64,000 nt of DNA from an uncultured Pelagibacteraceae bacterium (GTDB lineage: Bacteria > Pseudomonadota > Alphaproteobacteria > Pelagibacterales > Pelagibacteraceae). The DNA is taken from contig CABZCX010000001.1 in NCBI GenBank assembly GCA_902524345.1, forward strand, positions 5,001-69,000. Reading direction: 5' to 3'. The position numbers and the translations under genes were made by a program. Under the pieces are notes generated by a model that saw nothing but the letters and a program-made list of their open reading frames with translations, was not told where the DNA came from and did not search any database. Of this stretch, positions 38,697 through 50,348 are shown one piece after another. Positions within the stretch are counted from its first letter, which is position 1. Each line of letters begins with the position of its first letter.

Positions 38697-40133
38697 CTAG
38701 GCAAATTCATATTTTTTTTCAATTGACATGATAAATTGATTTATTTCATCAAGTTTTTTTAGCTCTTGCTCATCATCTCTATTAGATGCTTGATCTCTTA
38801 AATAATCAATTTCAGTATAAGCCATACTAACAGTTTGCCATTTTTCCTTATTTTTACTCAAAATTCTTCTAGCAATTTCACTTTTAATATTTTTGTATAA
38901 GTCAGGTGGTAAAATTTGAGGGGCTTCTTGATAAATTATTTTTTGACCAAACCAACTACATCTCTTGTCTTCAAACTTATCTAGCAGTCTAAGCTTACCT
39001 TCCCACGAGGAGCTGTGCCATGTTTTGAATAAAGCAGTATCTTTATTTGGAATAAATTTTTCGTATAAAGTTTCCTCAGGTAATAAGTCTTCCTGAGTTT
39101 TGGTTTGTGCTTTTTCTTCAGCTGCCTCTCTGTGAATGGTTTGAATATTTTTACAAAAGTTTTCACTATTTCTGACTAAATGAGCCCTCTTTTTAATCAT
39201 CTCTAAATCTAAATCTAAATATGGTTTTTGTTTTAAAGCGAACTTTTTATCAAGAATTATTGGTGCTTTATTAGTTTTTAAAACCCTTAAGGCTTTTGGA
39301 CTCATTTTTTTTAAAATATCTCTAAGTTGATTGATGGGTAAGTTTAATAATGGCTCCGGATCTCTTCTTAAATCCCATACATATCCCCAAGATGCATAAG
39401 ATGGATGATAGCAATGATTTGGATACAACGTACCTGCTAGATACATCATATTTCTACCCTTCACATTTTCAAAAATAGAATATATGCCCTCGTCTTTTAA
39501 AAGTGTTTCTACACTAGCTTTAGTTGATGTTTTTAAAAATGTTTCCCAATTATCTTTATGTTTATTTTTAATTATTCTAAGAATCTTCAAAGTGTTTATG
39601 GCGTCAGCATAGGCAGTATGGCTTGCTGAGGTATCAAAACCCTGCATTCTAGATAGAGACTCTAGTGCTAGGCTTGGATTTCCCGCCTCTGTTAACTCAG
39701 TTTTTAAAGTTTCTGAGTTAATAGTCTGGGCGGCTCTCGCTATATGTAAACCGTCATGTTGTTTATTTGGTGAAACATGAGTTGTATAAGGGTATCTATT
39801 TCCCTTAAAAAAGTTAAAATTTAGCATCCTTGAATCGAAATTTAAATTTGACCAGCCCAAGAACATTGCTGGGGCACATTTTATGAAAAAATTCTCAACA
39901 GCGCCTAAAAAATCATAATGTGAATAATTACCTTTAGTAAGTAAATCGATGCTAGTCGAATTAACAAGTAATGCCTTCGCGCTTGGCACCTCACCCTCTG
40001 GCATTCGTCCTCTTATATTTAACTTTCCAATTTCTTTTAGATTTTTATCAACTACAACAGCTCCAACTTCTATTATAGATCCCCATATTGTTGAATTTGT
40101 TGTCTCGGTATCGTAAATTACAATCTTATCCAT
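38697..40133 (-). CDS. sbcB: Exonuclease I (SbcB-type)
   Basis: 3'-5' single-strand DNA exonuclease used in recombination and mismatch repair. It starts with the DEDDh motif YDTETTNS (Exo I), has LGWSNLNFDSRML (Exo II) and the third motif with His and Asp in SASHTAYADAINTL. A C-terminal exonuclease I domain follows (YLAGTLYPNHCYHPS, EKFIPNKDTALF). 478 residues fits the full-length enzyme. It follows the PD-(D/E)XK exonuclease gene by 3 bases, so these nucleases and rmuC form a transcription unit. Confidence 0.92.
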   Translation of the reverse strand: MDKIVIYDTETTNSTIWGSIIEVGAVVVDKNLKEIGKLNIRGRMPEGEVPSAKALLVNSTSIDLLTKGNYSHYDFLGAVENFFIKCAPAMFLGWSNLNFDSRMLNFNFFKGNRYPYTTHVSPNKQHDGLHIARAAQTINSETLKTELTEAGNPSLALESLSRMQGFDTSASHTAYADAINTLKILRIIKNKHKDNWETFLKTSTKASVETLLKDEGIYSIFENVKGRNMMYLAGTLYPNHCYHPSYASWGYVWDLRRDPEPLLNLPINQLRDILKKMSPKALRVLKTNKAPIILDKKFALKQKPYLDLDLEMIKKRAHLVRNSENFCKNIQTIHREAAEEKAQTKTQEDLLPEETLYEKFIPNKDTALFKTWHSSSWEGKLRLLDKFEDKRCSWFGQKIIYQEAPQILPPDLYKNIKSEIARRILSKNKEKWQTVSMAYTEIDYLRDQASNRDDEQELKKLDEINQFIMSIEKKYEFA

Positions 40134-40136
40134 ATT

Positions 40137-40826
40137 TTATTGAACCAAATTATTCATCTCATTAAATTTTTTTAATCTTCCTAAAAACAAATTTTGATAT
40201 GTTACTAGTTCGGGCCCTTGAATTTTAAACTCTTGAAATAAATTATCCACTGTGCAAACAAGAATAATACAAGATGTAATATTAGAATTATACACAACAT
40301 TATGTGCTAAAGAATACGCTGCACATTGTAATAGCCAACTATCTATATACTCGAATTTTTTTGGTCTCCGGGCATTTTTAAAATCTATGATGCAAGATTG
40401 ACCCTCATAAATTCCTACACAATCAGCAGTACCCGCGTACCTATCAGGATAATAAAGTGTACATTCAACTCCCCATATTTCCTCTAGTCTATTTTTTAAA
40501 CCCTTTTCAATAATTTCTTTAGCCATTGTTTTATATTGTTCTTTATCCTCAAAGAAACTCAAGTTTTCTCTTCCTAAAAGAAAAGACTCTAAGTAACTGT
40601 GCATTTGAGACCCGCGGGAAGCAGCGTCTTTAACAATCTTATTTGCTACAGCTTCTCCTGTTCGTTCTCGCCAATTGGCTAAAGCAGCCTTATCCTCTTC
40701 AGATTTTGTTGCATCTAGAATTGAGGTGACGCTTGGTAATTTTGTTTCACCTAATAAGTATCTTCTTATTCCATCTTCAGTTGCTCTTGATGATGTAGGA
40801 TAGTTATATTTCTTATTCCATCGCAT
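40137..40826 (-). CDS. PD-(D/E)XK exonuclease of phage-like type
   Basis: RecB/lambda-exonuclease-like nuclease. Catalytic elements are visible: Asp in GTADCVGIY, the DxK of CIIDFKNARRPK, and the downstream QCAAY. The region KLPSVTSILDATKSEEDKAAL and the general layout resemble exonucleases of marine phages. The start at 40826 (MRWNKKYNYP) is preferred because a longer reading from 40904 would overlap rmuC by 41 bases; that start cannot be excluded. 229 residues. It lies between rmuC and sbcB, hence likely works on DNA ends in repair. Confidence 0.8.
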   Translation of the reverse strand: MRWNKKYNYPTSSRATEDGIRRYLLGETKLPSVTSILDATKSEEDKAALANWRERTGEAVANKIVKDAASRGSQMHSYLESFLLGRENLSFFEDKEQYKTMAKEIIEKGLKNRLEEIWGVECTLYYPDRYAGTADCVGIYEGQSCIIDFKNARRPKKFEYIDSWLLQCAAYSLAHNVVYNSNITSCIILVCTVDNLFQEFKIQGPELVTYQNLFLGRLKKFNEMNNLVQ

Positions 40827-40863
40827 GTGATTTCTTATAGAGGGTATTTTCTGAAAAAAGAAA

Positions 40864-41961
40864 TTATTTTTTAACTTGTCTATTTCTCTCAACGAAATTC
40901 TCAACGTTCTCAGTTAGTATAGCTTTTTCAACTTGCTCGGGATCTTTAATATTTTCTAAAGTTCTAGTAATTGATCTTGCATCAGTTCCAAACTTATCAA
41001 CGACACTCATCGCTTCATCTAGTTTTTTTCTTAAAACTATGACGTTGTCAAAATGCTTTGCAAACCTTGTGCTGATTGTTTTTAAATGGTTATAAATTTC
41101 CACTGCTCCTTTTTGAACCTTCAATGATTGAAAACCCATGTGTAAAGATTGTAGATAGGCTGACAGGGTATTAGGACCACAAATAACAATTTTATATTTT
41201 CTCATCAATTCTTGAGTAAGTAATTCTTTTGTACTTGGATCTTGGTACTCAGTTAATTCTCTATAAAGACTTTCTGAGGCAGCATAAACTATCGCAAAAT
41301 CAGTTGTTTTTGGTGGTACTATATATTTTTCATTAACACTTTTTGCTTTCAATTTAAAAGCACTTGCTAATTTTGATCTAGCATCAGCAACTGCTTTTTT
41401 ATCGTCTGCCTCATGCGCATCAGTAATTGCTTTAAATTTTTCTACAGGAAAATGAGAGTCCACTGGGACCAAAACATCTCCTTGAAGTTTGATAGCAAAT
41501 TCCACATTCTCGCTAGTATCCTCTTTCATTTTCACATTAGTCATAAATTGACTCGCTGGAAGTAAATCTCTAATTAAAGAATCAAGGCTACTTTCTGCTA
41601 ATACACCATATTTTTTTACACCTGCTAAAATTTTGGTTATCCCTTCTTGGCTTTGATTTAATAATTGAACCTGTTGATTGAAATTTCCAACCTTTTCATC
41701 AACCTTAGTTAAAGCCTCAGTCATGTCTTTTGTAACACCGGTTGACAGAGCGTTAAAGGATGTAGACATAGAACTTAACGAAGTATTAATTGTTGCATTT
41801 AAACTATCTTTGAGTTTTACAATTTCTGCATTTAAATTGGCTATCTCTTCGGCTTCTTTATTTTCATCCTCTTTTTTGGTCTTAGACTTAATGTTCAAAT
41901 AAAGAATTGCCAATGTTGCTATAAGTAATAAACCTAAAATTATTATTAAAATTGTGTCCAT
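40864..41961 (-). CDS. rmuC: RmuC family DNA recombination protein
   Basis: RmuC limits inversions at short inverted repeats in E. coli; the biochemical activity is a predicted nuclease. One N-terminal membrane segment (3-23, TILIIILGLLLIATLAILYL), a coiled coil (about 30-105), and the conserved core with LPVDSHFP-like VPVDSHFPVEKF, then PPKTTDFAIVYAASESLYREL. 365 residues is normal. First gene in the nuclease group; 42 bases separate it from the small gene upstream, a plausible island boundary. Confidence 0.93.
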   Translation of the reverse strand: MDTILIIILGLLLIATLAILYLNIKSKTKKEDENKEAEEIANLNAEIVKLKDSLNATINTSLSSMSTSFNALSTGVTKDMTEALTKVDEKVGNFNQQVQLLNQSQEGITKILAGVKKYGVLAESSLDSLIRDLLPASQFMTNVKMKEDTSENVEFAIKLQGDVLVPVDSHFPVEKFKAITDAHEADDKKAVADARSKLASAFKLKAKSVNEKYIVPPKTTDFAIVYAASESLYRELTEYQDPSTKELLTQELMRKYKIVICGPNTLSAYLQSLHMGFQSLKVQKGAVEIYNHLKTISTRFAKHFDNVIVLRKKLDEAMSVVDKFGTDARSITRTLENIKDPEQVEKAILTENVENFVERNRQVKK

Positions 41962-42003
41962 GATTCGTATGTTATACCTCCTTGAATATATTTAAAGTTA
42001 TTT

Positions 42004-42213
42004 TCAATTTACTTTTACGATTATGTTATTTTTTATTGTTACTTCTGCAAAAAATTCACGTCCTTTATTCTCAGTTGAATAAGGTCTGTTGCTACCAACT
42101 AACACTCCGCTCTGCCTATACTCTGGTCCAAACATACTTGTTTCGGTATAATTAAGCGGTTTTCCTATATTTTCCTTAAGCTCTTTTTTTGATTTGTAAT
42201 TGAAAATTAGCAT
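42004..42213 (-). CDS. Small conserved-looking protein of unknown function (69 aa)
   Basis: Not assigned to a named family. 69 residues, mixed charge, no membrane segment; it contains LKENIGKPLNYTETSMFGPEYRQSG-type sequence and ends in a beta-like FFAEVTIKNNIIVKV. The layout suggests a small beta-rich domain. Its ATG shares a base with the stop of the upstream gene (42213), so it belongs to the same operon. It may be host core rather than island, as it is the last gene before rmuC. Confidence 0.7.
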   Translation of the reverse strand: MLIFNYKSKKELKENIGKPLNYTETSMFGPEYRQSGVLVGSNRPYSTENKGREFFAEVTIKNNIIVKVN

Positions 42214-42479
42214 CAGTTTAATAACCTTTTTGGAACCTTACCCATCATAATTTCTTTCATATCTTGAAATTCTGAAGCAACATGATTTTGAACTGTTTTT
42301 ATAAATGACTTAATTGTTTTTTTATCAAAACCTAAATTTTTTAGTATCTCTTTAGCCTCTTTTTCATTTTCAGTAGAGATATAATGCTCTGCAATAGATA
42401 AGTATCTAAAGAAAACTTCTTTTTGGCTTTCTGTTTTAAGTTCAGATAGTTTCAGCTCCATTAAGTAATTTTTGTCCAT
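42213..42479 (-). CDS. Small helical protein of unknown function (88 aa)
   Basis: No family recognised. The sequence is helix-rich and charged, with ELKLSELKTESQKEVFFRYL, a middle TPR-like HYISTENEKEAKEILKNLG, and a C-terminal QDMKEIMMGKVPKRLL. The ATG at 42479 is chosen; a TTG at 42503 would give eight more residues and overlap the Vsr gene. It is coupled to the following 69-residue gene by a one-base stop/start overlap. Confidence 0.7.
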   Translation of the reverse strand: MDKNYLMELKLSELKTESQKEVFFRYLSIAEHYISTENEKEAKEILKNLGFDKKTIKSFIKTVQNHVASEFQDMKEIMMGKVPKRLLN

Positions 42480-42495
42480 TATTTGATATATATCT

Positions 42496-42864
42496 TTAGG
42501 CAATGATTAGACGTTCCAGAGTGTTAAAAGTTTTATCAATATTCTTTACTTTTAAAGTGCACTCCCATACATCAATGACTTTCCAACCTAATTTTTTAAG
42601 TTTATTTTTAGTAATAAAATCTCTCTTTTTATTAAGTTCTAATCTTTCTATCCAATATTGAGTTTTTGTCTTTGGCACATTGCTATGAGCGCAGCCGTGA
42701 TAGTGCCAATAGCAACCATGAACATTTAAAATTGTTTTATGTTTATGTAGAACAATATCTGGTTTACCAGGAAGTTTTTTCACATGAATTCTAAATCTGT
42801 AACCATTCTTATATAGTATAGATCTAATCAATTTTTCTGGTTTTGTATTTTTTGAGATACTCAT
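42496..42864 (-). CDS. vsr: Very short patch repair-type endonuclease (Vsr)
   Basis: Vsr enzymes nick next to T:G mismatches that arise by deamination of 5-methylcytosine in Dcm-type sites. The family core is clear: NTKPEKLIRSILYKNGYRFR, catalytic-Asp motif LPGKPDIVL, NVHGCYWHYHGC with zinc-binding His/Cys, then KTQYWIERLELNKKRD and VIDVWECTLK. The start at 42864 makes an ATGA overlap with the gene upstream and fits the family N-terminus (MSxxxNTKPE); a start at 42879 is possible. 122 residues. Linkage to a C5-methyltransferase at 47.3 kb fits. Confidence 0.93.
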   Translation of the reverse strand: MSISKNTKPEKLIRSILYKNGYRFRIHVKKLPGKPDIVLHKHKTILNVHGCYWHYHGCAHSNVPKTKTQYWIERLELNKKRDFITKNKLKKLGWKVIDVWECTLKVKNIDKTFNTLERLIIA

Positions 42865-43571
42865 TTTACTTTGACCCATTTCTTAAAATCTGGTCCTAAT
42901 AACTCAAGTAAATCATCTACACCCATCCTATTAATATCAAAGTTAAGTTGATATATTGAAAGTTCTTTTGTGAGTTCCCTATGATTTCCGGATACGTTTC
43001 TTTTTGAAATAATTTTAGGTAAATTTTTTTTATCAAATCTTAAATATAATTTTGTATATAAATCTAAAATATTTTTAGAAGAAATTAGGGTGGGTGAAGC
43101 AGAAATAGACTCCTCTTCATCGCTCCAATTATTAATTTCTTTTGAAAGATAAACTATAGATTTTTCTTTAAATTGAGAATAAAGTTCCCACCTTAATCTC
43201 ACAAGGTGTTTTTTCCAACTAGATGGAGCATTTTTATTAAGTATATATTTAATTTTTTGAGATCCACCAGATGGTCCAGGAAACAGCTGATTAAAAAAAG
43301 CTAAAGTTAGCCAATGAAAAATTCCAGTTTCAAATCTTATATTTTTAAGTTCTCGCAATTTTAAATCCAAATATTTTCCAAATTCGAAGGCTGATTTAAA
43401 TACCTTAGATGTATCAATTTCTATTTTAACATCTAAACTTTGATTTAAATTTTCATCATTAAGATATTTAAAAGGAACTGGAGTTTTTTTATTTCTTAAT
43501 TTTCTATCAAAAAAATCTTCAAATTTCTTTTCGCCAATTTCATTAAATTTTTTAAGAATAAGTTTGGGCAT
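42861..43571 (-). CDS. Uncharacterised island protein (236 aa)
   Basis: No named domain recognised with certainty. Soluble, Lys- and Trp-rich, with conserved-looking stretches FETGIFHWLTLAFFNQLFPG and LRWELYSQFKEKSIVYLSKEI and a C-terminal SGNHRELTKELSIYQLNFDINRM-type segment. No Walker motifs and no obvious PD-(D/E)XK signature. It lies between the 299-residue protein (one-base overlap) and vsr (4-base overlap), so it is made in step with both and may be a subunit of the same system. Confidence 0.75.
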   Translation of the reverse strand: MPKLILKKFNEIGEKKFEDFFDRKLRNKKTPVPFKYLNDENLNQSLDVKIEIDTSKVFKSAFEFGKYLDLKLRELKNIRFETGIFHWLTLAFFNQLFPGPSGGSQKIKYILNKNAPSSWKKHLVRLRWELYSQFKEKSIVYLSKEINNWSDEEESISASPTLISSKNILDLYTKLYLRFDKKNLPKIISKRNVSGNHRELTKELSIYQLNFDINRMGVDDLLELLGPDFKKWVKVK

Positions 43572-44470
43572 TAATCCTCATTTTGAATATTTAAATTTTG
43601 TCTTGCACTTTCATATTTTTTCAAAAGTTGAAATTGTTCTAAATATTTTTCGACGGCATTATTTATAAATAATTCAATATCATTTGAATAAATTTCCTCA
43701 TTTTCTGTGGATGTTGCTAATTGTTGTTGAATTTCCTCAACTTTAAAATTGGAGTTAGCTTTTTCAGCAAATTTTAAAAATTCTTGTATGTGTTTGTTTT
43801 CCTCAACATCTGATAAAATCAAACATCTTCTGAGAAGTTCTTTAAATGCATAGGAAAAAATTACCACTGTTAATCTATCATCTGTTTCGCATTCTGAGGC
43901 TATATCAAGTTTAGAGTTAAAATATATTACAGGTATCATTTTTGCTTTATCACTATCATTTTCAAATCCAACATCCCATGGGTGTTGGATTTCATCTGAT
44001 ATTTTTGTTGCAAATAACGGAAGTTCTCTATTTTTCCTTATCTTTTTAATTTCTTCTTTTTTACCAATATTAAAAGGTTTTATGGAATTGCTTGATGCTA
44101 ATATTTGATTGTTTTTGTTTGTAATAATTATTCTAAAGCTTACTCTATTTACATCTATTTCATCCAAACTTCTGTCTATTCGATCATCAACTTGGAAATT
44201 ACTATTACTAAAAGAATCAAAAAATGCTTCACCCAAAGTTCCTAGTTGAACCTCTTTTCTGAACGCACCTCTGTAAATTTCACAATAAATCTTAGAAGTT
44301 TGTTCATTCAGTTTTGAGTGATTTTTCCTAATTTTTTCTAAAACAGATTTTAAATTAAGAATTATATAAAATTCTCTCTCTAAAGAACTCACTGCTATAA
44401 ACACATCTCTTTGATCGTCCTCGATATCCCAGAATAATTCAACTCTTTTAGTATAATTGTATTTACCCAT
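43571..44470 (-). CDS. Uncharacterised island protein (299 aa)
   Basis: No family recognised. The N-terminal half is beta-rich (RVELFWDIEDDQRDVFIAV, CEIYRGAFRKEVQLG, VSFRIIITNKNNQILASS), and the middle has a conserved-looking MIPVIYFNSKLDIA. The C-terminal third is helical and Glu/Gln-rich (about 215-299), suited to protein contacts. The start overlaps the GHKL ATPase gene by 8 bases, suggesting stoichiometric production with the ATPase. It may be a partner or substrate-recognition subunit. Confidence 0.75.
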   Translation of the reverse strand: MGKYNYTKRVELFWDIEDDQRDVFIAVSSLEREFYIILNLKSVLEKIRKNHSKLNEQTSKIYCEIYRGAFRKEVQLGTLGEAFFDSFSNSNFQVDDRIDRSLDEIDVNRVSFRIIITNKNNQILASSNSIKPFNIGKKEEIKKIRKNRELPLFATKISDEIQHPWDVGFENDSDKAKMIPVIYFNSKLDIASECETDDRLTVVIFSYAFKELLRRCLILSDVEENKHIQEFLKFAEKANSNFKVEEIQQQLATSTENEEIYSNDIELFINNAVEKYLEQFQLLKKYESARQNLNIQNED

Positions 44471-46403
44471 TTTTAATCTCTTTAATAGCTATGTTGTCCT
44501 TTAGTTTTCTAGTTTTGACATAAATATCTTTTTTGCTTGTATCAAATCCTGTTACTTCAACAGTAAAATCTTCCTCTAGAGCAATGAACTCTATTCTATT
44601 TCCCTCTATCACTTTTAAATCTTTAATTTTTTCCTTTTTTGTAACTTTTACAGATCCTTTATTGATTATAAAATGACGATCAGGCGAATAGGCTTGTAGT
44701 GGATTTCCCCTTCTAACATCATAAGCACAAGTTGATCTTACCAGCATTGGAAATTCTTTTTTTTCAGTAGTTGACATTTTTAAAATTTTAAACCCTCCAT
44801 CAATTCTTGAATCCTCAACCATTTTTCTAGCGACAGGCTGCGCCTTTTTTCTTTTTTTTGTAATTTTAGTAATTGATGTTTTTTTTGAAAAATCGAAATC
44901 ATCTATTAAATTTTTTTCCTCTATTATGTCTTCTTCATCCGATATAATCTTTGGAACAAAATTTGAAAATTTATCAAAATCAACTTCATCTTTAGTTTCT
45001 GTAACAATCTTATATGTTTCATTCATGCAATTATTAATTAGTTCAAAAATTCTTTTTGCGTCTTCAAGAAAATAATTTGCATCTATATCTTTATGTAGCG
45101 GGTCGAATTTTAAGTGTGCTTTTCCTTCTGAGTCTCCAAGCATTGTAGAAATATGCTCATCATCCGCCCAGAAATATGCCATACATTTACTGCTAAATTT
45201 AAATCTTTGACTCATTTCAGGTAACTGTAAGAAACCTCTCATGAACAATGCCGGAGTTTTAGTTGTTCCCTCACTACTTTCGCCTCTTTTTAAATGAAAA
45301 TTAAAGTAAGATTTTTCATAACTTTGAGTTTTATAGGGAATTTTTACATACACACGGAATGAAATCGTTTCACCTAAATAATAACTTTTTCTAATTTTCT
45401 CAATATCTTTACTAATTAAATTCTGAAAATTAAGATTTTTATCTATTTGATCATTTTCACTTAAATCTATTTTATAAAAATTGTCATCTGGCAATGATCT
45501 TGCATCATAAATAAAATCAACAAAACTAATATTTAGATTTATTGATTTCAAATGTTGTTTCACATTTGAACTACTTATAATTTCATCATTTATTTCCAAC
45601 TCCATTTTATCAAAAAGAATAGCTGCATAAAATCTTTTAAGATATGAAACTTTCAAATTTTGTAATTTAACTCTTTCATGCGGATAAGGAATAACAACTG
45701 ATAAGCCTGGTTCATTTTTTCTTTTAAGGCCAGTTAATCTCACAAATTCATCTATTTCTTTTTCATCTAAAATTGGAAATGTTTCATTCTTGGTTTGAAT
45801 TTTTTCATTACCTTTAAAAGGAACAGTATAACTTAAATACGGATGGTAGTTATCCTCACCAATAGTTGTTTGACCAGCATGTGCAATACCTCTAAGTAAT
45901 TTTTTATTTGTATTATGTTGAATAGAAAATCCAAAAAAAGCTTTTATATGTGAAGCTATCCAGTAAACGTTTCTGCCCTGTCCTCTTCGACCTAAATCTT
46001 TTCCCGATTTTGATCGAGAAAATGTTAAAAAAAAATGCTGATATCTGTTTCCTCTAGACTTTTCAAAGTCTCCAGTAAGTCCATATGTATTATAATCTTC
46101 AATAATTAAAAAATCTGTTTTTTTTTCGTTAATTTTGTCTTCACGATAACCATCTTCTGAAAGTTTGAGATGATTCTTTAAGTCCAATAAATAATTATCA
46201 AAAAATTTACTATTTTCTAAAGTAACATATCTAATAGATACTTTACCCTTTTTATTTGGGAGAGTTGCATCTATTTTGTTTTGCCCATCTTCATTACCTA
46301 ATGAGGCCGAAATAGGATGTTTTTCAGTATCAAATTCTTCTGCAACTGGATTATCAAATTCTATTCCTGGAAGAACTTGGGGCAACCATTTACCTTTGTT
46401 CAT
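44463..46403 (-). CDS. GHKL ATPase of MORC/MutL-like (paraMORC) type
   Basis: Large ATPase with a Bergerat fold. The second ATP motif reads FLIIEDYNTYGLTG (98-111: Asp 103 and glycines) and the lid motif GRRGQGRNVYWIAS (138-151, GxxGxG). An S5-like region follows at about 230-420 (LSVVIPYPHERV, MELEINDEI, ALFMRGFLQLP). The C-terminus has a Lys-rich linker (about 500-530) and a beta-rich end. MORC/MutL-like GHKL proteins are known from comparative genomics to sit in restriction-modification loci with nucleases and cytosine methyltransferases, which matches the neighbours here. 646 residues. Its role, perhaps a DNA-clamping or remodelling motor, is inferred. Confidence 0.8.
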   Translation of the reverse strand: MNKGKWLPQVLPGIEFDNPVAEEFDTEKHPISASLGNEDGQNKIDATLPNKKGKVSIRYVTLENSKFFDNYLLDLKNHLKLSEDGYREDKINEKKTDFLIIEDYNTYGLTGDFEKSRGNRYQHFFLTFSRSKSGKDLGRRGQGRNVYWIASHIKAFFGFSIQHNTNKKLLRGIAHAGQTTIGEDNYHPYLSYTVPFKGNEKIQTKNETFPILDEKEIDEFVRLTGLKRKNEPGLSVVIPYPHERVKLQNLKVSYLKRFYAAILFDKMELEINDEIISSSNVKQHLKSINLNISFVDFIYDARSLPDDNFYKIDLSENDQIDKNLNFQNLISKDIEKIRKSYYLGETISFRVYVKIPYKTQSYEKSYFNFHLKRGESSEGTTKTPALFMRGFLQLPEMSQRFKFSSKCMAYFWADDEHISTMLGDSEGKAHLKFDPLHKDIDANYFLEDAKRIFELINNCMNETYKIVTETKDEVDFDKFSNFVPKIISDEEDIIEEKNLIDDFDFSKKTSITKITKKRKKAQPVARKMVEDSRIDGGFKILKMSTTEKKEFPMLVRSTCAYDVRRGNPLQAYSPDRHFIINKGSVKVTKKEKIKDLKVIEGNRIEFIALEEDFTVEVTGFDTSKKDIYVKTRKLKDNIAIKEIKNG

Positions 46404-46677
46404 TATAATTCCTTAATTCTCTTTTTATTACCTCAATTTCATTTAAGCATTTTTTTAAAATAAACCTACTTTTCGAAACTTTTATAAATTTTAGTGTATT
46501 AGTTGGTAAATTAAGAATTTTATTTAATATAAATAATATTCTATTATTCTTATAAAACTCTAATTCTGCTTTTTTGGTAAATTCAACACTCTGTAAATAT
46601 ATTGTATAATCTCTTGCAAACTCTTGGGCGTATTGCAATCTATCCTGTAAACAAGAATGGAAATAATCTTTTTTCAA
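46390..46677 (-). CDS. Small island protein of unknown function (95 aa)
   Basis: Basic, helix-rich small protein with Leu/Ile/Phe heptad-like spacing (LDRLQYAQEFARDYTIYL-like N-terminus, then RILFILNKILNLP). No known domain seen. Start is a TTG at 46677, supported by a strong AAAGGAG seven bases upstream, one of the clearer Shine-Dalgarno sites in the island. It overlaps the ATPase start by 14 bases, so the pair is coupled; it could be a small regulator or chaperone of the ATPase. Confidence 0.65.
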   Translation of the reverse strand: MKKDYFHSCLQDRLQYAQEFARDYTIYLQSVEFTKKAELEFYKNNRILFILNKILNLPTNTLKFIKVSKSRFILKKCLNEIEVIKRELRNYNEQR

Positions 46678-46911
46678 TTAAACTCCTTTATAGTTAGTTT
46701 TTAACGCGTGCAAGCTACATAGAAAGAAAGAAAGGTGTAGCTTTGCACGCATTAAAATTTGCATAGTTAACTTGCTAATTGCAACTTTTGAACACAAACA
46801 TAAGACAAAACCAGGATGCACTCTGGCGAGAGGTATTGTAAGTGCTCTATCGATGTTGTTGCTCACCGTGTATGATAACCTCTTCTTTTTAACGTGCATC
46901 AATTCCATAAT
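46678..46911 (-). other. GC-richer segment with weak 76-codon open frame, possible ncRNA
   Basis: This 234-base stretch inside the minus-strand operon is visibly richer in G+C than its neighbours. An open frame of 76 codons (46678-46908) fits between the flanking genes, but its product (Cys/Leu/Ser-rich, ending KLHLSFFLCSLHALKTN) has no protein-like conservation I recognise, and its end is formed by a hairpin. Further short inverted pairs exist on the minus strand (AGAGGTTAT with ATACCTCT). A structured RNA, a small mobile element relic or an unusual small protein are all possible. Confidence 0.35.
46699..46757. repeat. Long imperfect stem-loop
   Basis: Arms 46699-46719 and 46736-46757 form about 20 pairs with one mismatch and one bulge. 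The core is GCGTGCAAGCTACA against TGTAGCTTTGCACGC, and the loop holds a (GAAA)3 repeat on the plus strand. Neither side is followed by a good T-run, so it does not look like a simple intrinsic terminator. Confidence 0.75.
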
Positions 46912-47199
46912 TCATTTTTTTTTAAAATATTGGTCGTAAAGACTTTCTGGTTTCTTTAAATTTTCTACTTTTTTTGAACTTTTATTCCATTTATCCAACA
47001 CATACTCTTTACTCCATTCCTTCATTTTACTTTCTATAATTTTTTTTGCTCCATCGGGAATCTCGTAAACATTTCTGTTAGATAGGTTTCCAACTCCTCT
47101 AAGAGCACTTTTAAGTAAACTCATTCTAAGATTAAAATAGTACTCAAATTTTTCAGAGGGATTTAAATGACTAGTTCTTGTTTTTTTAGGTTTTACCAT
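46912..47199 (-). CDS. Small basic protein heading the island's minus-strand operon (95 aa)
   Basis: Unknown family. Lys/Arg/Ser-rich with LNPSEKFEYYFNLRMSLLKSALRGVGNLSNRN and a helical C-terminal half (GAKKIIESKMKEWSKEYVLDKWN). It is the first gene transcribed leftward from the symmetric promoter at 47224-47269, with an approximately 35-base leader. Its position matches where small controller proteins lie in restriction-modification loci, but no clear helix-turn-helix is visible, so a regulatory role is a guess. Confidence 0.65.
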   Translation of the reverse strand: MVKPKKTRTSHLNPSEKFEYYFNLRMSLLKSALRGVGNLSNRNVYEIPDGAKKIIESKMKEWSKEYVLDKWNKSSKKVENLKKPESLYDQYFKKK

Positions 47200-47223
47200 A
47201 AATTTACCTTATATAATATCCAT

Positions 47224-47269
47224 TTGACATTCTCACAGAACATATATATATCTTCTGTGGAAATGTCAA
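47224..47269. promoter_or_regulatory. Symmetric bidirectional promoter/operator of the methyltransferase island
   Basis: A 17-bp inverted repeat (TTGACATTCTCACAGAA and TTCTGTGGAAATGTCAA, 15 of 17 positions symmetric) with a 12-base AT spacer. Each strand reads TTGACA, a 17-base spacer, then TATATC (plus) or TATATG (minus), so two overlapping promoters point outward, one to the methyltransferase and one to the minus-strand operon. The right arm contains the methyltransferase ATG (47263), which predicts an mRNA with almost no leader. Two polymerases could not bind at once. Confidence 0.75.
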
Positions 47270-48474
47270 GAGAGAATAAGATAAAAATTGCTGAATTATT
47301 TTGTGGGGCTGGCGGTTTTGCTGAAGGAGCTAAAAAAGCTGGTTTTGAGCATATTTGGGGTGTTGATATTCATAAAGACTCCTGTGAGACCTTTAAAAAC
47401 AATCAAAAATGTGAGGCCTTTCACGAAAAAATAGAGGATTTTTCAAAGCCAAAAAGGCTTAAAAAAATAAGGAAAGATTTTGGAAAAATTAATGGTCTTC
47501 TTTTCGGATTCCCCTGCAATGATTTTAGTTTAGTTGGAAAAAATAAAAAAATGGAGGGTGAATTTGGAGGTTTATATACATACGCATGTGATGTATTAAA
47601 TTTTTTTGAACCAGAATTCTTTGTTGCAGAAAACGTTACTTCTTTAAGTAAAAAATTAAAACTTAACTCACCGCGCACGGTAATAGTAGAAGATGAATTT
47701 AATAAAGAAGAACTACAAAATCAGAATTATCAAAATTTTAAAAAAATAATGGGTGATTTAGCTAATTGTTCTAAGCATGGATATAGAATATATGCTGATA
47801 ATTATAAGTTTGAAGAATATGGAATTCCACAAACAAGACATAGAATTATACTAGTTGGTTTTAAAGGTGATTTTTTTGATAAAAATAACATTAACTTTGA
47901 AAAGCCAAAAAAAATAGAGGGATCTTATATCACTTGTAAAAAAGCTCTCCAAAAAATACCTAAATGGGCAAAACACCAAGAACTCACAAATCATGATGAA
48001 AGGGTTATACGAAGATTGAAAAAGACAGCTGAAGGTAAAAATGTTTGGGATTTAGGTGATGATAAAGATGGTCTCCCTGGAGTTAAAAAAGCAAGAATGA
48101 GCCATATCTATAAAAGACTAGATAGTTCAAAACCTGCCTACACTGTTACAGGAAGTGGAGGTGGTGGAACACATGTATATCATTATAAAGAAAATAGAGC
48201 TTTAACGAATAGAGAAAGAGCAAGATTACAAACTTTTCCTGACAAATATAACTTTGTTGGTGGAAAAGAGTCTATCAGAAGACAAATTGGGATGGCTGTA
48301 CCTGTATTGGGAGCAGAAAAAATAATGAAAGCTGTCAAAAAAGCACTAAAAAAAAATAAGAAACAAATGCCTTTTCATCACGACTGGATGATAAAAGCAA
48401 AAGGTAAAGATTTATACTTTACAGGAAAAGAGGGAGTAGGGCCACAAATGAGTTTTGATTTTAATAATTCTTGA
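47263..48474 (+). CDS. dcm: DNA (cytosine-5) methyltransferase
   Basis: SAM-dependent C5 cytosine methylase. Motif I AELFCGAGGFAEGAKKAGF, catalytic Cys in motif IV GFPCNDFSLVG, motif VI AENVTS, motif VIII QTRHRIILVGF and motifs IX-X RLQTFPDKYNFVGG with QIGMAVPVLGAEKI are all present. 403 residues from ATG 47263; a longer frame from 47167 is less likely because it would run through the promoter. The target-recognition region lies between VIII and IX and its site cannot be deduced. It is divergent from the operon with the GHKL ATPase and Vsr. Confidence 0.93.
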   Translation: MSRENKIKIAELFCGAGGFAEGAKKAGFEHIWGVDIHKDSCETFKNNQKCEAFHEKIEDFSKPKRLKKIRKDFGKINGLLFGFPCNDFSLVGKNKKMEGEFGGLYTYACDVLNFFEPEFFVAENVTSLSKKLKLNSPRTVIVEDEFNKEELQNQNYQNFKKIMGDLANCSKHGYRIYADNYKFEEYGIPQTRHRIILVGFKGDFFDKNNINFEKPKKIEGSYITCKKALQKIPKWAKHQELTNHDERVIRRLKKTAEGKNVWDLGDDKDGLPGVKKARMSHIYKRLDSSKPAYTVTGSGGGGTHVYHYKENRALTNRERARLQTFPDKYNFVGGKESIRRQIGMAVPVLGAEKIMKAVKKALKKNKKQMPFHHDWMIKAKGKDLYFTGKEGVGPQMSFDFNNS

Positions 48475-48487
48475 TAGATTAAATAAT

Positions 48488-48619
48488 ATGGATTTAATAT
48501 TTATCTTTAAAATAATTGTAGTAATAGGAATCATAGTTGGACTTTATGCAATTATCAGAAATTTGGATATTATAAAAATTATTCTTATTTACTTTAAAGA
48601 CAAATTATTTGGTAAGTAA
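48488..48619 (+). CDS. Possible small single-span membrane protein (43 aa)
   Basis: Short frame 13 bases after dcm. The product has one hydrophobic stretch (about residues 3-24, LIFIFKIIVVIGIIVGLYAII) followed by a basic C-terminus (KDKLFGK). It overlaps the 3' end of hisG on the other strand by 15 bases. AT-rich DNA makes such frames easily, so this is only a candidate; no clear Shine-Dalgarno is present. Confidence 0.4.
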   Translation: MDLIFIFKIIVVIGIIVGLYAIIRNLDIIKIILIYFKDKLFGK

Positions 48620-49294
48620 TCTTATTAAACTTTTTAACCCCTTTTTCTTCTTACTTTTCTTTGAGCTAAATATACAAGCTTGAGACTTTAATATTTGTCC
48701 ATCATTTAAAGTTCTAAGATTGTTTTGTTTAAGTGTAGTTCCTGAGCTTGTGATATCAGATATAAGCTGAGCAGTATTCATTGCACACATCAATTCAGTA
48801 CTACCAAGTGACTTAACAATGGTAAAGTTAGTGACACCTCGTGAATAAAGAAATTCTCGTGTAAGATTTACGTACTTCGTTCCAATTTTTAATAAAGATT
48901 TATTACTTTTTTTGTAATTCTCTGCAACCTCATCAAGATCTAAAGTGGTAAATAAGTCAATAAATTCGTTTGGACAAGCAAGAACTAAGGTTGCAAAACC
49001 AAAATTAAGCTTTTTTTCCAATTTTATATTTTTTTGAATATTAATCTCAGACTCTTTCAAGAGATCTAATCCACTAATCCCAATATCTAAATTACCAATA
49101 GATAATTGATCTAAAATTTCTCTTGCATGCATAAATGAAACTGAAATATTAGGTCTTCCTTTGATTTTACCTATCAATTCTCTTTTGCCTCTTTCAAAAA
49201 AAATTCTCAGTTTCTTTTTTTTTAATACTTTCTCGGAATCTTCTTTGAGTCTACCCTTAGATACAATTCCTATCTTAATTTTTTCTTTATTCAT
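48605..49294 (-). CDS. hisG: ATP phosphoribosyltransferase, short catalytic subunit
   Basis: First step of histidine synthesis: ATP plus PRPP to phosphoribosyl-ATP. It starts MNKEKIKIGIVSKGRL and contains GNLDIGISGLDLL and the PRPP loop region with ELMCAMNTAQLISDITSSGTTL. 229 residues from ATG 49294, the short HisG-S form lacking the C-terminal ACT-like domain, which needs HisZ as regulatory partner. hisZ lies directly upstream, overlapping by 8 bases, so the complex is encoded together. Confidence 0.93.
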   Translation of the reverse strand: MNKEKIKIGIVSKGRLKEDSEKVLKKKKLRIFFERGKRELIGKIKGRPNISVSFMHAREILDQLSIGNLDIGISGLDLLKESEINIQKNIKLEKKLNFGFATLVLACPNEFIDLFTTLDLDEVAENYKKSNKSLLKIGTKYVNLTREFLYSRGVTNFTIVKSLGSTELMCAMNTAQLISDITSSGTTLKQNNLRTLNDGQILKSQACIFSSKKSKKKKGLKSLIRLLTK

Positions 49295-50348
49295 AAACCC
49301 CAAGATTGATTGCAGCACCTACAGCAGGTATATTTTTTAAACCCAGATTTTTTTGTGCCATATTATTATAGCGACCTCCTGCAATATAAGTCTTCGTCTT
49401 ATTTTTGAGCTTTATATCTATTGAAAAATTGAATGAGTCGTAATACTCAACTTCTTTACCTCGACCATTGCTGGCTGAAAATTCATACTTAAGATTTTTT
49501 TGATTAAAATTAGTAATTGGAAAAAAATCTTTGCCGACAAATATATTCAAATTATATTTTTTAAAAAATCTATTCAATTTTTCTGGGGCATCTTTTAAAG
49601 ATGTTTTAATTTTTAGAAATTCTTTAATAACTTTAGCACTATACTTTCCTGTTTTTGTTGTTCTTGGATTAATCACTTTACTTTCATATCTGGAAAGTAT
49701 TTCTTTATACGATCTTCCAGCAATCATCCTATTTGGGTTGTCCTTTTTCATTTTAAGATAGATTTTATGATCAGCAGAAACTACAAAAGGATCGATATCT
49801 AGATTACTTTCTAATCTTTTTAAAAGTTCTAAAAAATATTTTTCATTCCAGTAAAATTTGATAAGACGATTTTGCCATCTAGGTACGACTGGAAGTTTTC
49901 TAATTAAAAGTTCAAATAATTTAAAATTACCAATTTTTATTGTTGCCTTTTTAAATCCTGAGGTTTTCAACATTTTTATTGAGGTATCAATAATTTCCTT
50001 GTCATCTTTTTTTTCATCTTTTGATGAAAAAATCTCTATTCCTATTTGATCAATAACTGTTTTTTTATTATTATAAGATTTTCTAAAAGCGTTGCCTGAG
50101 TAAAAAATTTTTTCTCTTTTGTCGATATCTTTTTGTGCATAATACAAAATTGCTGAAAGGCTAAGATCAGGATTTAGTGCAAATTCTTTACCTTCAGGAT
50201 TATTAAAAGAGAACAAATATTTTCTAAAATTTTCACCTGATTTTTGAAGAATATGACTTGCCTCAATTACTGGAGGTAATTCAATAAACTTAAATCCTCT
50301 AGACTTAATAGTTTTAAGGATTTTATTAGATAAACTTTTGGATTTCAT
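49287..50348 (-). CDS. hisZ: ATP phosphoribosyltransferase regulatory subunit
   Basis: HisRS-like protein without aminoacylation activity that binds HisG-S and confers histidine feedback. It aligns with the class II synthetase core (FIELPPVIEASHILQKSG, LNPDLSLSAILYY, YIAGGRYNNM near the C-terminus) but lacks a full HisRS set of motifs and the anticodon-binding domain. 353 residues. It sits between hisS and hisG with overlaps of 23 and 8 bases. Confidence 0.9.
   Translation of the reverse strand: MKSKSLSNKILKTIKSRGFKFIELPPVIEASHILQKSGENFRKYLFSFNNPEGKEFALNPDLSLSAILYYAQKDIDKREKIFYSGNAFRKSYNNKKTVIDQIGIEIFSSKDEKKDDKEIIDTSIKMLKTSGFKKATIKIGNFKLFELLIRKLPVVPRWQNRLIKFYWNEKYFLELLKRLESNLDIDPFVVSADHKIYLKMKKDNPNRMIAGRSYKEILSRYESKVINPRTTKTGKYSAKVIKEFLKIKTSLKDAPEKLNRFFKKYNLNIFVGKDFFPITNFNQKNLKYEFSASNGRGKEVEYYDSFNFSIDIKLKNKTKTYIAGGRYNNMAQKNLGLKNIPAVGAAINLGVYE

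What the first reader, a model, noticed from the sequence alone, without database searches (positions are those of the whole stretch)
42861..44470. Two uncharacterised proteins locked in register between ATPase and Vsr
The 299-aa and 236-aa genes are coupled by one-base and 4-8-base overlaps to the ATPase upstream and vsr downstream. Neither shows a domain I can name. The first is beta-rich with a helical tail; the second has strongly patterned aromatic stretches (FHWLTLAFFNQLFPG). Such strict coupling is typical of complex subunits, so they are the best candidates for novel recognition or effector parts.
Basis: inference. Interest (0 to 1): 0.55.

Follow-up and report, generated by a model that had tools for sequence, protein, structure and literature searches.

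The report
Swappable ATPase partners in restriction island
The two unnamed genes encode two conserved partner proteins of an ATP-powered machine that sits beside DNA-methylation and DNA-repair genes and is probably used against viruses; in related bacteria the three-gene machine is exchanged as one block for very different versions while its neighbours stay the same.

Summary
In detail: two tightly coupled genes (B, 299 aa; C, 236 aa) lie between a GHKL-type ATPase (A) and vsr, and no Pfam, NCBIfam or PADLOC model covers them. They are not orphans. A-B-C loci occur in many bacterial phyla and in archaea; profiles built without the window recover B (8e-15) and C (3.6e-44). In 398 genomes B and C occur in the same five, adjacent, beside an intact ATPase in four and a remnant in one. 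A is a diverged relative of PADLOC's candidate PDC-M33A and carries the ExxxH motif of paraMORC2 ATPases. AlphaFold: B is a beta-sandwich plus helices, C helical without a PDB match; no nuclease fold recognised. Nine related genomes carry the island at one site with a near-constant methyltransferase (81% mean identity) and Vsr (92%) but seven different A-B-C cassettes (32-34%), one DUF6339/PDC-M33-like. So A, B and C move as one unit, apart from methyltransferase and Vsr. Seven of eight loci with a HhH-GPD glycosylase lack Vsr, which suggests repair for Vsr. Best reading: B and C are core subunits of an ATP-dependent restriction-type defence complex. New variant of a known kind; activity untested.

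The parts
43571..44470 (-). B: 299-aa partner protein (beta-sandwich about residues 7-141, further strands to 185, helical tail 190-298)
   Evidence: held-out family profile E=8.3e-15, Z=10000; pLDDT 89.9, pTM 0.76; Ig/C2/FN3-like sandwich, best Z 7.4
42861..43571 (-). C: 236-aa partner protein, mostly helical, no PDB match
   Evidence: held-out profile E=3.6e-44; pLDDT 90.5, pTM 0.88; family conserved residues H122 (56/57), G195 (55/57), D212 (52/57), F229 (54/57)
44463..46403 (-). A: 646-aa GHKL-type ATPase with E..QN..DA, DxxTxGLxG, GxxGxG-type and ExxxH motifs
   Evidence: PDC-M33A 2e-15; D103, T106, G108, G111, G138, G141, G143, R389, E426, H430 invariant in 10 of 10
42496..42879 (-). Vsr-family endonuclease
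   Evidence: TIGR00632 3.7e-35, above cut-off; PF03852 1.9e-21
47167..48474 (+). C5 cytosine DNA methyltransferase (true start probably inside the ORF, since relatives begin near the first motif)
   Evidence: (PF00145 2.4e-58)
46912..47199 (-). S: 95-aa small protein upstream of the ATPase; family found in 33 of 95 loci
46695..46910 (-). Conserved element of about 215 nt, probably a structured RNA or leader; a small ORF is not excluded
   Evidence: (z -3.35); no Rfam family
46390..46677 (-). small2: 95-aa conserved small ORF just before the ATPase (TTG start)
   Evidence: 8 of 9 loci, mean identity 87%
42213..42503 (-). p96: 96-aa island protein after vsr (weak RuvA C-terminal-like match, below cut-off)
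   Evidence: (no match in 7 empty sites)
42004..42213 (-). p69: 69-aa island protein, last gene before rmuC
   Evidence: no Pfam match
41962..48604 (.). Whole island between hisG (48605-49318) and rmuC (40864-41961)
   Evidence: in all 7 relatives whose site was fetched (9 searched) hisG is followed directly by rmuC; (PF02646 RmuC 4.9e-46)

Best explanation
The 299-aa (B) and 236-aa (C) proteins are core subunits of one ATP-dependent complex with the GHKL ATPase (A). A-B-C is the restriction or interference side of a restriction-modification-type defence island: the C5 methyltransferase marks self DNA, Vsr repairs the T:G mismatches that deaminated 5-methylcytosine leaves, and A-B-C acts on DNA or on infections that lack the mark. 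Proposed action: A dimerises on DNA through its GHKL ATPase cycle, B (beta-sandwich with helical tail) and C (helical, no known fold found) form the DNA- or trigger-contacting and regulatory surface, and ATP turnover leads to blocking, remodelling or cleavage of the invading DNA. Shown here: conservation, coupling, co-occurrence, exchange as one block, separation from Vsr and methyltransferase. Inferred: defence role, complex formation, use of methylation as the self mark. Unknown: which subunit recognises and whether any subunit cuts.
For: Held-out family profiles recover B and C and no other window ORF at a meaningful level. B and C occur in the same 5 of 398 genomes and are adjacent in all 5; an intact ATPase is next to them in 4, a remnant in the fifth. 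The order is conserved across proteobacteria, Planctomycetes, Acidobacteria, Actinobacteria, Bacteroidota and archaea. A C5 methyltransferase is in 71 of 95 loci, Vsr in 48 of 95. In nine related genomes at one site, mean identities are A 34, B 32, C 34 against MTase 81, Vsr 92, p96 92; identity matrices correlate A-B 0.50 (p 0.009), A-C 0.65 (p 0.002), B-C 0.55 (p 0.004), but A-Vsr 0.18 (p 0.23) and A-MTase 0.08 (p 0.35). Window against L030: DNA about 86% identical on both sides, no detectable similarity over 42865-46412, which is A+B+C to within about ten bases. PADLOC lists three-gene relatives as defence candidate PDC-M33A/B/C. 7 of 8 loci with a HhH-GPD glycosylase lack Vsr.
Against: No nuclease is recognised in A, B or C. 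24 of 95 loci have no C5 methyltransferase by my profile (four of these show an amino-methyltransferase-like motif in a neighbour; several are short contigs, but some have 7 kb on both sides), so the methylation link is frequent, not strict. 21 of 95 loci also carry an EcoRII-C- or MvaI/BcnI-type gene family, so A-B-C could be an accessory there. A also correlates weakly with p96 (0.42, p 0.053). No activity of any member was found in the papers searched.
Confidence: 0.6

Rival explanations
1. Vsr is the effector nuclease: the ATPase with B and C senses unmodified or mismatched DNA and licenses Vsr to nick it, in the way MutL works with MutH.
For: Vsr overlaps C by 4 bases here and follows C, or the extra gene D, in the nine same-site loci except L159, where an 872-aa gene intervenes. 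Iyer 2008 proposed paraMORC-nuclease coupling by analogy with MutL, MutH and Vsr (parts read).
Against: Vsr does not co-vary with A, B or C but does with the methyltransferase; it is nearer the methyltransferase in 30 of 37 loci; it is not seen in 47 of 95 loci, some truncated, and 7 of 8 glycosylase loci lack it, as expected for a repair function.
Confidence: 0.12
2. A-B-C is an accessory of ordinary type II restriction enzymes, for example stimulating or controlling cleavage at methyltransferase sites.
For: EcoRII-C-type genes in 16 and MvaI/BcnI-type genes in 5 of 95 loci.
Against: 74 of 95 loci, the window included, show neither of these two families and most keep A-B-C. Other restriction enzymes were not exhaustively searched.
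Confidence: 0.13
3. A-B-C is a MORC-like epigenetic or chromosome-structure module that reads cytosine methylation and regulates genes, not a defence system.
For: GHKL relatives of MORC are linked to methylation (PMC2292703); the L159 cassette carries an 872-aa protein with RNA polymerase alpha-CTD and sigma region 4 domains.
Against: Patchy distribution (5 of 397 order genomes), empty sites (7 of 7 fetched) and extreme divergence within one cassette slot fit an arms race better than a housekeeping regulator.
Confidence: 0.1

Closest known systems
PDC-M33 (PADLOC-DB candidate system, three proteins A, B, C)
   Same: Gene order ATPase-B-C; the window ATPase hits the PDC-M33A model (2e-15); the L159 cassette with a DUF6339 protein occupies the same chromosomal slot.
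   Different: Window B and C match no PDC-M33B or C model, nor do the L018 relatives; profile-profile support is moderate for C (probability 91.6) and weak for B (48.7).
paraMORC2 GHKL ATPases (Iyer, Abhiman and Aravind 2008, PMC2292703)
   Same: GHKL motifs, ExxxH motif, methyltransferase and Vsr neighbours.
   Different: No helicase in the window island; the text parts read describe helicases and nucleases as partners and do not describe B or C; its figures are not held.
DUF6339 (PF19866)
   Same: Third gene of group-2 loci (6 of 10 scanned) and of L159 (9.9e-22), same position as C.
   Different: None of the 57 members of A7, window C included, matches it at 0.01.
Hma (helicase, m5C methyltransferase, ATPase; PMC8565338)
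   Same: ATPase linked to a C5 methyltransferase.
   Different: Hma has a helicase; the window ATPase's only PADLOC match was PDC-M33A. Passages only were read.

Membership tests
PDC-M33 | ATPase matches PDC-M33A | tested here: met
   2e-15, 54.5 bits, best stretch residues 33-339
PDC-M33 | B matches PDC-M33B and C matches PDC-M33C | tested here: not met
   0 families at E<=1 for both proteins
PDC-M33 | Order A-B-C on one strand | tested here: met
PDC-M33 | B and C homologous to the PDC-M33 proteins at profile level | tested here: inconclusive
   C: probability 91.6, E 8e-7; B: 48.7, E 1.8e-4
paraMORC2 | GHKL ATP-binding motifs | tested here: met
   Motif alignment only; invariant or near-invariant across 10 rows; no Pfam ATPase model hit
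paraMORC2 | ExxxH motif late in the S5 domain | tested here: met
   E426 and H430 invariant in 10 of 10, equivalents in 8 of 8; that the region folds as S5 was not tested
paraMORC2 | S5 fold after the GHKL domain | not tested
DUF6339 | Match to PF19866 | tested here: not met
   Window C: none at E<=1; none of 57 members at 0.01
PD-(D/E)XK or HNH nuclease | Recognisable nuclease fold in B or C | tested here: inconclusive
   C: no PDB match below E 2.3 and no Z>=2 among 65 chains; B: only sandwich-type matches, over residues 7-141
Type II restriction-modification system | Cognate methyltransferase | tested here: met
   (presence of a C5 methyltransferase; its motif is unknown)
Type II restriction-modification system | Recognised restriction endonuclease in the island | tested here: inconclusive
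   None recognised in the window island apart from Vsr; divergent ones cannot be excluded

The most novel reading that the evidence does not exclude
A-B-C is a separate, widespread class of ATP-dependent restriction machine in bacteria and archaea without a classical nuclease, whose cutting or blocking activity sits in the unmatched C fold or in the assembled complex, and which is built for hot-swapping: a constant methyltransferase, repair enzyme and structured leader RNA form a docking frame into which radically different A-B-C effector cassettes are recombined to stay ahead of phages.
Probability: 0.3. Interest if true: 0.8.

Novelty: new variant of a known kind. Interest (0 to 1): 0.6.

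Why it matters
GHKL ATPases related to MORC proteins have been known beside methyltransferases since 2008, without these partners in the text I read. This work assigns two partner families, shows that they travel with the ATPase and not with Vsr, and gives a natural swap experiment: nine genomes with the same methyltransferase and Vsr but seven different ATPase cassettes. That makes it directly testable whether the cassette or the methyltransferase sets specificity, and what a restriction machine without a recognised nuclease does. If the organism is SAR11-like, as it seems, it also offers a view of phage defence in one of the commonest marine groups.

Tried and rejected
Family libraries: Pfam, NCBIfam and PADLOC on the window proteins, and Pfam and NCBIfam on 57 C and 61 B family members, gave only chance-level matches; the PF16019 match (0.03) was dismissed as below cut-off and seen in 1 of 10. 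A search with the ATPase alone in viral contigs gave no relative; plasmids gave one weak ATPase match and none for B or C. PDB sequence searches with the A, B and C profiles gave nothing meaningful. Foldseek and VIA-align listed no nuclease for B or C; a missing match is not evidence of absence.

Considered and rejected: Vsr as part of the unit. p96 as a chromosomal neighbour: rejected, it is absent from 7 of 7 empty sites. B of L015, L017, L020-L023 and L033 as the same family by sequence: only position and a weak profile match support it. The RNA element as a known family: no Rfam match. The element as purely coding: one frame is open in 9 of 9, its pN/pS is 0.55 against 0.81 in the two other frames, and variable columns show no strong codon phase (26, 22, 20), so coding is neither shown nor excluded.

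The 95-locus census was gathered through the ATPase, so it cannot test B or C without ATPase; searches do. Of 98 relatives found only the best 80 were kept. Locus ends truncate some neighbourhoods. Only one representative of each neighbour family was scanned against Pfam. The means for B and C include L159, whose B is not recognised by my profile.

Full report
What is there. The overlaps are 8 bases for A-B, 1 base for B-C and 4 or 19 bases for C-vsr depending on the vsr start. Vsr and the C5 methyltransferase at 47167-48474 are clear family members. Neither B nor C has a Pfam, NCBIfam or PADLOC match worth the name. The ATPase matches one PADLOC model, PDC-M33A, at 2e-15.

Relatives. The ATPase was absent from 60 near relatives, but the PDC-M33A model matched 11 of 398 genomes of the phylum, own genome included. 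One of these, L016, has the ATPase, a 270-aa protein and a C homologue in the same order. A search of 397 genomes of the order with an ATPase profile found four besides the own genome. A scan of named genome contigs with an eight-row ATPase alignment found 98 relatives, of which the best 80 were kept, from alpha-, beta- and gammaproteobacteria, Acidobacteria, Planctomycetes, Actinobacteria, Bacteroidota and archaea among others. From these I took 67 candidate B and 61 candidate C proteins by position. Profiles made from them alone, without the window, find the window B at 8.3e-15 and the window C at 3.6e-44 (database size set to 10000); the only other window ORF listed is at E=40 with the C profile. 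So B and C are two real protein families, strongly diverged in this lineage.

Always with the ATPase. In a sample of 398 genomes drawn without regard to the ATPase, the C profile hits 5 and the B profile hits the same 5, adjacent in every case. Four have an intact ATPase next to them; the fifth (G301, locus L124) has intact B and C next to a C-terminal ATPase remnant (best match 43% over 122 residues, 1.1e-26). In the ATPase-gathered set of 95 loci the median A-B and B-C gaps are both -4 bases.

Folds. With alignments of 61 and 57 rows AlphaFold2 gives confident models: B pLDDT 89.9, pTM 0.76, strands to residue 185 followed by six helices from 190 to 298; C pLDDT 90.5, pTM 0.88, mostly helical. 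B residues 7-141 resemble Ig/C2/FN3-type sandwiches (best Z 7.4, 98 residues, 2.9 A; Foldseek best E 0.023), a level that may mean only a common arrangement; the rest of B was barely tested. C has no PDB match below E 2.3, and none of 65 re-aligned chains reaches Z 2. No nuclease fold was recognised, which does not exclude one. Conserved polar residues of C that could matter are H122 (56 of 57), D212 (52 of 57) and, in most relatives but not in the window, R121, R199, Q206 and E228; for B they are N5, T7, R9 and R113.

The neighbourhood. In 95 loci (window included) my profiles find the ATPase in 94, C in 76, B in 75, a C5 methyltransferase in 71 and Vsr in 48, a small protein S in 33, an EcoRII-C-type gene in 16 and a HhH-GPD glycosylase in 8 (representatives identified). 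The window B falls just outside the threshold of that census because the search space was larger. A MvaI/BcnI-type gene is in 5 and DUF4420 with Z1 in 3. Group-2 loci (L015, L017, L020-L023, L033) have ATPase relatives whose B and C are not found by my B and C profiles; L021 (A, B, C) and L022 (B, C) match PADLOC's PDC-M33 models where tested, and 6 of 10 C proteins scanned match DUF6339. Seven of the eight glycosylase loci have no Vsr. Both enzyme types are known to deal with T:G mismatches from deaminated 5-methylcytosine (recalled, not tested), so the replacement argues that Vsr here is a repair gene. In 30 of 37 loci that have Vsr, methyltransferase and C, Vsr is closer to the methyltransferase than to C.

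The swap locus. Nine complete or near-complete relatives without the ATPase were searched for rmuC; in all seven whose site was fetched, hisG is followed directly by rmuC (PF02646), while in the window the stretch 41962-48604 lies between them. DNA comparison of the window with L030 shows about 86% identity over 38697-42864, 46413-46922, 47282-48469 and 48487-50348, and no detectable similarity over 42865-46412, which is A, B and C to within about ten bases, nor over 46923-47281 around S. A search with the conserved element between S and A found it nearly full length in 8 of 329 genomes of the genus, own genome included; six further genomes gave only short hits of 29-63 bases. With L030 this gives nine loci at the same site. 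Mean pairwise identities: methyltransferase 81, Vsr 92, p96 92, small2 87, p69 85, RmuC 90, hisG 68, hisZ 67, against A 34, B 32, C 34 and S 43. Three genomes share nearly the same cassette (A 95-97%), so there are seven distinct cassettes. Rank correlations of the identity matrices: A-B 0.50 (p 0.009), A-C 0.65 (p 0.002), B-C 0.55 (p 0.004), Vsr-methyltransferase 0.75 (p 0.003), but A-Vsr 0.18 (p 0.23), A-methyltransferase 0.08 (p 0.35), C-Vsr -0.20, C-methyltransferase -0.14; A-p96 is borderline at 0.42 (p 0.053). The three genomes with the shared cassette carry three different S types. In L159 the slot holds a quite different cassette: a 656-aa ATPase, a 347-aa protein, a 251-aa DUF6339 protein (9.9e-22) and an 872-aa protein with RNA polymerase alpha-CTD and sigma region 4 domains. 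So a PDC-M33-like cassette and the window's cassette are alternative occupants of one slot, which supports functional equivalence beyond the modest profile similarity (C probability 91.6, B 48.7).

Interpretation. A, B and C form one inherited and probably one physical unit; methyltransferase and Vsr form another. The patchy occurrence, empty sites, divergence in one slot and the candidate-defence status of relatives point to an antiviral role. The most likely scheme is a restriction-type system in which the methyltransferase marks self, Vsr repairs the side effects of the mark and A-B-C acts on unmarked DNA. The step from conservation to activity is inference. Against it stand the lack of a recognised nuclease, the 24 of 95 loci without a C5 methyltransferase by my profile, and the 21 of 95 loci that also have an EcoRII-C- or MvaI/BcnI-type gene.

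Known work. Iyer, Abhiman and Aravind 2008 (PMC2292703; parts 1-3 of 4 of the text read; figures not held) defined paraMORC1-5 and gave paraMORC2 an ExxxH motif; the window ATPase and all nine aligned relatives have it (E426, H430). Their Figure 2 legend lists Candidatus Pelagibacter among the species abbreviations, so a relative of this ATPase may already have been seen there. Bellieny-Rabelo 2021 (PMC8011034; passages) links related ATPases to C5 methyltransferases and Vsr. PADLOC 2021 (PMC8565338; passages) reports Hma. In the library searched, 'PDC-M33' and 'DUF6339' occur in no paper, 'paraMORC' in seven, and searches for GHKL with Vsr and for SAR11 defence loci listed no further paper whose title or abstract start describes this system (listings only). 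This covers open-licence papers alone.

Verdict.

Noticed in passing
window 46695-46910 (-); L029:6904-7117, L030:6339-6551, L155-L160: A conserved element of about 215 nt between S and small2, more conserved than neighbouring genes in L029 (87% against 68-79%). It folds better than all 200 shuffles (z -3.35); 6 of 55 consensus pairs show double changes and no shuffle of 500 reaches the covariation score, though the nine sequences are closely related. One frame is open in 9 of 9, so a small ORF is possible.
   Followed up: partly
window 46912-47199 (-); 33 of 95 loci: Small S protein (GNLSNR-type motif) upstream of the ATPase in distant lineages; a probable further component that no Pfam model covers in the window.
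   Followed up: partly
L159:13236-15854: An 872-aa protein with RNA polymerase alpha-CTD matches (two stretches) and a sigma-70 region 4 match inside a DUF6339-type cassette, between C and vsr.
   Followed up: no
L030:10615-11094 and L032:7677-8147: An extra protein of about 158 aa between C and vsr in two loci; L030 has a weak SAD/SRA match (0.006, below cut-off), L032 none.
   Followed up: no
L067, L069, L077, L084, L085, L101, L108: A HhH-GPD glycosylase gene next to the C5 methyltransferase where Vsr is missing, archaea included.
   Followed up: partly
L124:6971-8427: B and C intact beside a decayed ATPase, a possible system in decay.
   Followed up: no
G024, G561, G722, G796 (loci L148-L151): Short hits of about 35 bases (87-89%) to the hairpin part of the RNA element elsewhere in the genus, origin unclear.
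   Followed up: no
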